Source of the DNA: Blastocatellia bacterium
GTDB taxonomy: Bacteria > Acidobacteriota > Blastocatellia > Pyrinomonadales > Pyrinomonadaceae
DNA length: 64,000 nt
Reading direction: 5' to 3'
Assembly: GCA_003168335.1 (NCBI GenBank)
Contig: PMSM01000011.1
Location: 223,001 to 287,000, forward strand
This document shows, piece after piece, positions 55,723 through 56,985 of the stretch. The position numbers and the translations under genes are program-made. Position 1 is the first letter of the stretch. Every line of letters starts with the position of its first letter. The notes below the pieces were generated by a model, which did not search any database, was not told where the DNA came from, and saw only the letters and a program-made list of their open reading frames with translations.

Positions 55723-56985
55723 CTACCTCTCGCCGAGAGTGTAGACGGTGGTCTTCGGATTGTAGGTCTTCCAGTCAAACCAATAGTCCTTGAGCACCGC
55801 AATCTTCGTCAACTGTTTGCCCGTAAGCGTCCCGTTTAAGGCAGTGCCGGTAAAGTCCCATTCCGTGCCTTTATCGTCAATCAGTCGTAGCGGTGCCGAG
55901 TTCGGTTTGAGGAAGAACTCACGCTCATGGCCTTCGACAGTTCGATCGAAAGCGCGAATCGACTTGCCGTCCTCGCCCAGCACGATCACGAGCGGCGTGC
56001 CCGCTAACTTATCGATTATGGGATTCTGTTTTTGCAGGGCCGCAACTGGATAAGCCCCGGATGCATTATTAACGGTTATTCCGACTACAAGTTCGCGCTG
56101 ATCCAGAGTCGGCGCGCTCACCTGTGTGGCCACCGGAACGCGCGACATCCGATCTTCCCAATCAGGCGGTGCGTACTCTCCTTTCGCGGCGATCTTTTCA
56201 TCCGGGCTGAGTACGCGGCCTTGCGGCTGTTCGCTTTTCCACGTGGCAAAAGTGAGTTCGTCCATGAAGGCAGGCTTGAGACTCTTACCCTTCAGCGGAC
56301 CAAAGATCGCCTCGCCCGTCACTTGTTGCCACCACGAACCAGTCTCTTCATCCTTCATAATGAAATTCTGATTGTTAATTCCGGCGAGATGAAAATGAAG
56401 TACCCGCCCCTCAACTGTCGTTTCCCACACCAGACCGGTGTGACAGAGCGTTCAATAAGTCGCACAGATCGGCGTCCCACCCACCACGTCAGAGACGACG
56501 TGATGATAGGCCATCAGCCGCACTGGATATGCCACGGCTTCATTATTGATCTTGACCGCCAGCACCATGTCGGAATCCCGGACAAAACTGGCGTCCTTTG
56601 CCTTGACGTAAGCGCTGTTGCGCAGGGGATTGAACATCCACTCGAAATGATTCTGGCGCGCAAACCACGCCGGGACGAAGGTCAATAGAAGGAGGACGAC
56701 GAGGAGCGTCTTGCGCCACCAGCGACGGGCCCGCGCCCATTGCCGGACCACGAGCGCAAACGCCGCAACCAACATGATGACGGTGGCCAGGGGAGACCAA
56801 TCTCGCAGCACGTAGGAGATCTCGAGTGCCCGTTGCGTCTGCGGGCGAAAAGGCTGGATTAGAAACACCGGAACGATTACCAACGTTAGGGACAGCAGGA
56901 GCAGGAGCGGGAGCAGCAACCAGATCATCCGACGCCCGATGCGACCGGCAGTGCCCGACCTGGTTTCAGCTAAGATGTCGTCCAT
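55723..56985 (-). CDS. Candidate selenoprotein: membrane-anchored DUF3179 protein, Sec (TGA, complement 56452-56454) at the first Cys of CxxC
   Basis: In-frame continuation across TGA: ...VVGGTPICATY[U]TLCHTGLVWETTVEGRVLHFHLAGINNQNFIMKDEETGSWWQQ...; ORFs 56985-56452 and 56430-55723 are in the same frame. Confidence 0.75.
56426..56442 (-). promoter_or_regulatory. Candidate bSECIS hairpin for the DUF3179 gene
   Basis: CACACC-GGUCU-GGUGUG (extendable by a U-G pair), 15 nt between TGA and loop; loop GGUCU resembles the AGGUCU loop of E. coli fdhF. Confidence 0.6.

What the first reader, a model, noticed from the sequence alone, without database searches (positions are those of the whole stretch)
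55723..56985. Second candidate selenoprotein: DUF3179 protein with TGA replacing the first Cys of a CxxC (UxxC)
On the minus strand ...GGTPICATY-TGA-TLCHTGLVWETTVEGRVLHFHLAGINNQNF... is in frame through the TGA. DUF3179 proteins normally read ...ATYCxLCxTG..., so TGA sits on the conserved Cys of a putative redox/metal CxxC. A 6-bp perfect stem (CACACC/GGUGUG) with loop GGUCU lies 15 nt after the TGA. The loop is almost the E. coli fdhF SECIS loop (AGGUCU). I know of no characterised DUF3179 selenoprotein, so this may be a new selenoprotein family.
Basis: partly seen in the sequence, partly recalled or inferred. Interest (0 to 1): 0.95.

Follow-up and report, generated by a model that had tools for sequence, protein, structure and literature searches.

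The report
DUF3179 selenoprotein in an acidobacterium
The stop codon inside this gene is almost certainly read as the rare amino acid selenocysteine, as it is in many related soil bacteria, but this protein family was already on the published list of predicted selenoproteins, so this is a well-supported new case rather than a new family.

Summary
A DUF3179 gene (- strand, 55723-56985; PF11376, E = 1.6e-62) has one in-frame TGA (56454-56452), followed 9 nt later by a 6-bp hairpin with loop GGUCU. The genome has tRNA-Sec, SelA, SelB and SelD (SelD itself with an in-frame TGA).

In 71 DUF3179 sequences from the phylum this position is Sec (44) or Cys (27), never anything else. In 19 TGA genes averaging 51% amino-acid identity, five consecutive degenerate codons over the hairpin are identical, while codons elsewhere vary. 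In a scan blind to synonymous choice there, 74 of 80 TGA genes have exactly CACACCGGTCTGGTGTGG; the six exceptions keep a hairpin through compensated changes or, in two, by rebuilding it 5 nt downstream with the same loop. Cys forms in genomes lacking SelA and SelB lose the hairpin sequence.

The family is not new: two reviews list DUF3179 (UxxC/T) as a predicted selenoprotein, crediting a 2007 paper, and an NCBI record already bears the name '(seleno)protein'.

Added here: wide use in Acidobacteriota (plus Gemmatimonadales and Nannocystis), a recurrent neighbouring AhpD-like selenoprotein gene, and a duplicated, tentatively Rieske-like fold without cluster ligands. The reaction catalysed is unknown.

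The parts
55723..56985 (-). DUF3179 selenoprotein gene, 420 aa read through one UGA; three predicted N-terminal membrane helices, then two tandem repeats of one domain
   Evidence: model mean pLDDT 94; duplication: hhalign 99.8% probability between the two halves
56452..56454 (-). In-frame TGA, codon 178, read as selenocysteine
   Evidence: Column is Sec (44) or Cys (27) in 71 of 71 relatives; only TGA, never TAA/TAG, interrupts listed DUF3179 genes in the phylum
56426..56442 (-). SECIS hairpin: CACACC - GGUCU - GGUGUG, stem begins 9 nt and loop 15 nt after the UGA (extendable by one U-G pair, 56443 with 56425)
   Evidence: Fold; nucleotide-level conservation and compensated changes
55076..55645 (+). 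Convergent neighbour: AhpD/CMD-like (peroxidase-related, TIGR01926) gene with in-frame TGA at 55358-55360 in a CxxU motif; second selenoprotein gene
   Evidence: TGA conserved in 9 of the 10 loci examined for the neighbour, this one included
55371..55387 (+). Probable SECIS hairpin of the AhpD-like gene: ACGCAGA-GTT-TCTGCGT, 10 nt after its TGA
   Evidence: Identical ACGCAGAGTTTCTGCGT in five of the loci examined, this one included

Best explanation
This is a genuine selenoprotein gene of the already catalogued DUF3179 (UxxC/T) family, in an acidobacterium with a complete Sec system. During translation the UGA at 56454 is decoded by tRNA-Sec delivered by SelB, which recognises the hairpin CACACC-GGUCU-GGUGUG just downstream; SelA and SelD supply the selenocysteinyl-tRNA. 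The product is inferred to be a membrane-anchored protein with its C-terminal part outside the cytoplasm, in which the first of two duplicated domains carries the reactive selenol with conserved His and Asp in the same domain. Its most likely role, by inference, is thiol/selenol redox chemistry, such as reduction of a peroxide or other oxidised small molecule, possibly in the same pathway as the adjacent AhpD-like CxxU protein. Decoding is supported by comparative evidence; topology, chemistry and partner are inferred. The confidence given is for Sec decoding; the redox role I would put at about 0.6 and a peroxide substrate at about 0.25.
For: Machinery in the same genome: tRNA-Sec 67 bits with anticodon TCA, SelB 381 bits, SelA 530 bits, SelD 360 bits with its own in-frame TGA. 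Column always Sec or Cys in 71 relatives. Co-occurrence: of 47 phylum genomes whose listed DUF3179 has one TGA, 43 have SelB (Fisher P = 1.6e-5 against the sample) and three of the other four have SelA. Within one family (f16), G085 has TGA, SelA and SelB, while G095, G165, G173, G132 and G375 have TGC and neither. Hairpin sequence fixed across synonymous sites in TGA forms and drifting in Cys forms; exact in 74 of 80. Compensated changes: C-G to G-C (L093, L142), C-G to U-A (L114), CAC/GUG to CAU/AUG (L054/L153). Relocated hairpin with the same loop in L121 and L159. AhpD-like UGA gene adjacent in several lineages, although the own genome has only three such genes.
Against: No expression, protein or selenium data. 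One TGA-bearing genome (G321, 93% complete) shows neither SelA nor SelB, and L140's genome shows no SelB; both may be assembly gaps. Rfam has no matching family for the hairpin. A hairpin of this stability is common in shuffled sequence. Function rests on inference only; the AhpD-like neighbour is absent from most DUF3179 loci.
Confidence: 0.95

Rival explanations
1. The TGA is a true stop or a recent nonsense mutation or sequencing error, leaving a pseudogene or a split gene whose second half starts at the GTG at 56430.
For: Databases mostly hold the C-terminal 235-aa piece as a separate protein, which is what a standard gene caller produces.
Against: The TGA sits at the same codon in dozens of genera and in three phyla, downstream frames stay open, the column is otherwise always Cys, and synonymous sites over the hairpin are fixed.
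Confidence: 0.02
2. The UGA is read as a standard amino acid (for example Trp or Cys) by a reassigned code or natural suppressor tRNA rather than as Sec.
For: The frame is open through UGA.
Against: The genome carries the full Sec system; many long ORFs in the window end at TGA under table 11; the column alternates with Cys only; Cys forms occur in genomes without SelA and SelB.
Confidence: 0.02
3. The identical 18 nt over the hairpin reflects protein constraint (HTGLVW) or recent gene transfer, not an RNA signal.
For: The peptide is strongly conserved and some genomes are related; the genome sets partly overlap.
Against: Mean amino-acid identity is 51% and codons vary freely elsewhere; Cys genes with the same HTGLVW peptide do not keep the nucleotides; exceptions are compensated or relocated hairpins.
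Confidence: 0.03

Closest known systems
DUF3179 domain-containing selenoprotein, UxxC/T (predicted 2007 in a deltaproteobacterial symbiont of Olavius algarvensis; listed in PMC9312934 and PMC13188914)
   Same: Same Pfam family (PF11376) and same Sec motif UxxC or UxxT.
   Different: The original example is from a deltaproteobacterium; here the relatives are mainly Acidobacteriota, with a nearly fixed GGUCU-loop hairpin, and second-position Ala/Asp/Val forms were also seen.
E. coli fdhF SECIS element
   Different: Different stem sequence and gene; no sequence homology claimed.
AhpD-like / CMD-domain selenoproteins, CxxU (Sargasso Sea selenoproteome, PMC1088965)
   Same: The adjacent gene (55076-55645, +) has the same domain and CxxU motif.
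   Different: Belongs to the TIGR01926 peroxidase-related subfamily; below the cut-off of the named seleno-model NF041238.
Rieske [2Fe-2S] domain fold
   Same: The high-probability matches of the Sec domain in the PDB, including the top-ranked one, are Rieske domains (2qpz, 3c0d, 5bok; probability up to 1.00); the second repeat aligns weakly with Rieske sequences.
   Different: No match below E = 0.001; cluster-binding CxH and CxxH motifs are absent; in the only usable alignment the Sec does not fall on a ligand position.

Membership tests
Bacterial selenoprotein | In-frame UGA at a position that is Cys in homologues | tested here: met
   71 of 71 relatives have Sec (44) or Cys (27) at the column
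Bacterial selenoprotein | Host encodes tRNA-Sec, SelA, SelB, SelD | tested here: met
Bacterial selenoprotein | SECIS hairpin shortly downstream of the UGA, conserved beyond coding need, with G in the loop | tested here: met
Bacterial selenoprotein | Selenium incorporated in the protein | not testable with these tools
   needs labelling or mass spectrometry
DUF3179 (PF11376) | Score above the family's curated cut-off | tested here: met
   212.1 bits against a cut-off of 27
Known DUF3179 selenoprotein family (UxxC/T) | Sec at the first position of UxxC or UxxT in DUF3179 | tested here: met
   UTLC at codons 178-181; motif as listed; the 2007 paper itself was not held
Rieske [2Fe-2S] protein | Rieske fold | tested here: inconclusive
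   Foldseek probability up to 1.00 but best E = 0.06
Rieske [2Fe-2S] protein | CxH and CxxH cluster ligands | tested here: not met
   No such pair of motifs conserved in alignment A4

The most novel reading that the evidence does not exclude
DUF3179 is a duplicated Rieske-like domain that lost its iron-sulphur ligands and became a membrane-anchored selenoenzyme, working with an AhpD-like CxxU selenoprotein encoded next to it, as a two-selenoprotein peroxide-detoxifying pair found in more than one phylum.
Probability: 0.2. Interest if true: 0.55.

Novelty: new member of a known kind. Interest (0 to 1): 0.35.

Why it matters
It turns a listed prediction into one with strong comparative support for Sec decoding, including compensated and relocated SECIS hairpins. 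It shows the family to be common in Acidobacteriota, where databases mostly hold it as a truncated 235-aa 'hypothetical protein', so annotation pipelines miss the Sec residue. The link to an AhpD-like selenoprotein gives a first testable lead on function.

Tried and rejected
Hairpin stability as evidence: rejected, shuffles fold as well. Rfam for the hairpin: no match. PDB by sequence: nothing for the protein, one irrelevant match for the profile. Rieske by sequence profile: the Sec repeat gave no useful alignment, the second repeat a 76% match to the N-terminal part of the Rieske domain; Pfam Rieske matched one of 44 members at E = 0.083. These do not place the Sec on a cluster ligand, so the idea of a Sec-ligated cluster was dropped. 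NCBIfam has no model for this protein. The original 2007 paper was not held. Viral structure library: best match an uncharacterised Indivirus protein, not followed. The six exceptions among the 80 genes were examined one by one rather than dropped; the three genes L052-L054 were left out of the 19-gene codon statistic because their hairpin differs, and that choice was made after seeing them.

Full report
OBSERVATION. On the minus strand the frame from ATG 56985 to TAG 55723 contains one TGA, at 56454-56452, codon 178 of 420. The read-through product is a full DUF3179 protein (PF11376, E = 1.6e-62). A 6-bp hairpin, CACACC-GGUCU-GGUGUG, begins 9 nt after the TGA and its loop after 15 nt. Taken alone the hairpin proves nothing, since shuffled sequence folds about as well.

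MACHINERY. The same genome (5.16 Mb, 14 contigs, 96.6% complete) has tRNA-Sec with anticodon TCA, SelB, SelA and SelD. SelD itself contains one in-frame TGA. The genome has a single DUF3179 gene, this one.

THE COLUMN. A survey of 401 genomes of the phylum found DUF3179 in 136; where a listed match was interrupted it was always by exactly one TGA, never TAA or TAG. Aligning 71 of these sequences shows Sec (44) or Cys (27) at the column and nothing else. The second position of the supposed CxxC is Cys in this subfamily but Ala, Thr, Asp or Val in others, so a single reactive Sec/Cys, not an obligatory CxxC pair, is the conserved feature.

CO-OCCURRENCE. Of the 47 genomes whose listed match carries the TGA, 43 have SelB against 261 of 401 overall (Fisher P = 1.6e-5); genomes are related, so the P value is only a guide. 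Of the four without SelB, three have SelA. The family coded f16 gives a clean contrast: G085 has the TGA form, SelA and SelB; G095, G165, G173, G132 and G375 have TGC and neither.

THE HAIRPIN. In 19 TGA genes with mean amino-acid identity 51%, the codons CAC ACC GGT CTG GTG are identical in all: zero entropy at five consecutive degenerate codons, against a mean of 1.15 bits at 58 other conserved columns, where only the Sec codon itself and one Phe codon are invariant. Five Cys genes with the same peptide HTGLVW use different codons there. Of the six others, L093 and L142 have CACACG-GGTCT-CGTGTG, L114 (Nannocystis pusilla) has CACACT-GGTCT-AGTGTG, and L153 has CATAC/GTATG with another loop; in L121 and L159 the old stem is broken but a new one, CGGGTCT-GGTCT-GGACCCG, places the same loop 5 nt further on. 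On 14 distinct sequences 96.9% of stem cells pair, with two pairs showing changes on both sides; no shuffle in 500 reached the pairing, but the count of doubly changed pairs alone was reached by 33. L052-L054, from two genera of the window's own family, have a longer stem and another loop. Some genomes are the same.

DISTRIBUTION. Named records are mostly Acidobacteriota (Bryobacterales, Blastocatellia, Pyrinomonadaceae, Vicinamibacteria, Holophagales), with a Gemmatimonadales MAG and two Nannocystis genomes. The last three carry SelB-like matches, over the cut-off in Nannocystis, below it and truncated in Gemmatimonadales. The closest relative found, L140 (an Acidobacteria 'gp4' MAG), shares 75% nucleotide identity over the gene; the window is probably from the same class, by inference.

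NEIGHBOUR. The convergent gene at 55076-55645 (+) is AhpD/CMD-like (TIGR01926, E = 5e-33; PF02627) with a TGA at 55358 in a CxxU motif. A relative with TGA at the same codon lies near DUF3179 in L056, L140, L097, L099, L129, L098, L165 and L162, in various orientations, and one with Cys in L107. The own genome has only three such genes, one with TGA, so repeated adjacency is unlikely to be chance, though no formal background was computed. CxxU proteins of this kind are known.

STRUCTURE AND FUNCTION. The model is confident (mean pLDDT 94). Three N-terminal helices precede two halves that align with each other at 99.8% probability; only the first carries Sec. Positive charges before helix 1 and between helices 2 and 3 suggest that the C-terminal part lies outside the cytoplasm (inference). 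The Sec domain alone matches Rieske domains best in the PDB (probability up to 1.00, TM by target up to 0.58, best E = 0.06), but cluster ligands are absent and sequence profiles support this only weakly. His161, Asp166 and Asp212 are conserved in the Sec domain. A redox role is the best guess; the substrate is unknown.

NOVELTY. DUF3179 with UxxC/T is listed as a predicted selenoprotein in PMC9312934 and PMC13188914, crediting Nucleic Acids Res 2007 35:4952; that paper was not held. An NCBI record already bears the name 'DUF3179 domain-containing (seleno)protein' for a Vicinamibacteria protein, a Cys form. Selenoproteins in Acidobacteria have been known since 2006. Many database entries are nevertheless the 235-aa piece after the TGA. 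This is therefore a new, well-supported member of a known kind.

Noticed in passing
window 55076-55645 (+), TGA at 55358-55360: AhpD/CMD-like gene with CxxU and its own conserved hairpin ACGCAGA-GTT-TCTGCGT; a second selenoprotein gene, adjacent to DUF3179 in several other lineages too.
   Followed up: partly
L019 (own genome, contig C7:141967-142896): SelD of this genome has one in-frame TGA, so the selenophosphate synthetase is probably itself a selenoprotein.
   Followed up: no
L121 and L159, just after the TGA: SECIS hairpin rebuilt 5 nt downstream with the same GGUCU loop while the ancestral stem is broken; a case of SECIS relocation.
   Followed up: partly
L052, L053, L054: In two genera of the window's own family the GGUCU loop is replaced by seven-base loops on a longer stem, which raises the question whether their SelB recognises a different loop.
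   Followed up: partly
window 59174-59219 (-): Acido-Lenti-1 RNA (RF01687), 45 bits, a curated sRNA family; not examined further.
   Followed up: no
BFVD A0A1V0SD44 (Indivirus) and A0A1V0SF28 (Hokovirus): Uncharacterised giant-virus proteins match the Sec domain's predicted fold (E = 1.4e-4 and 0.016).
   Followed up: no
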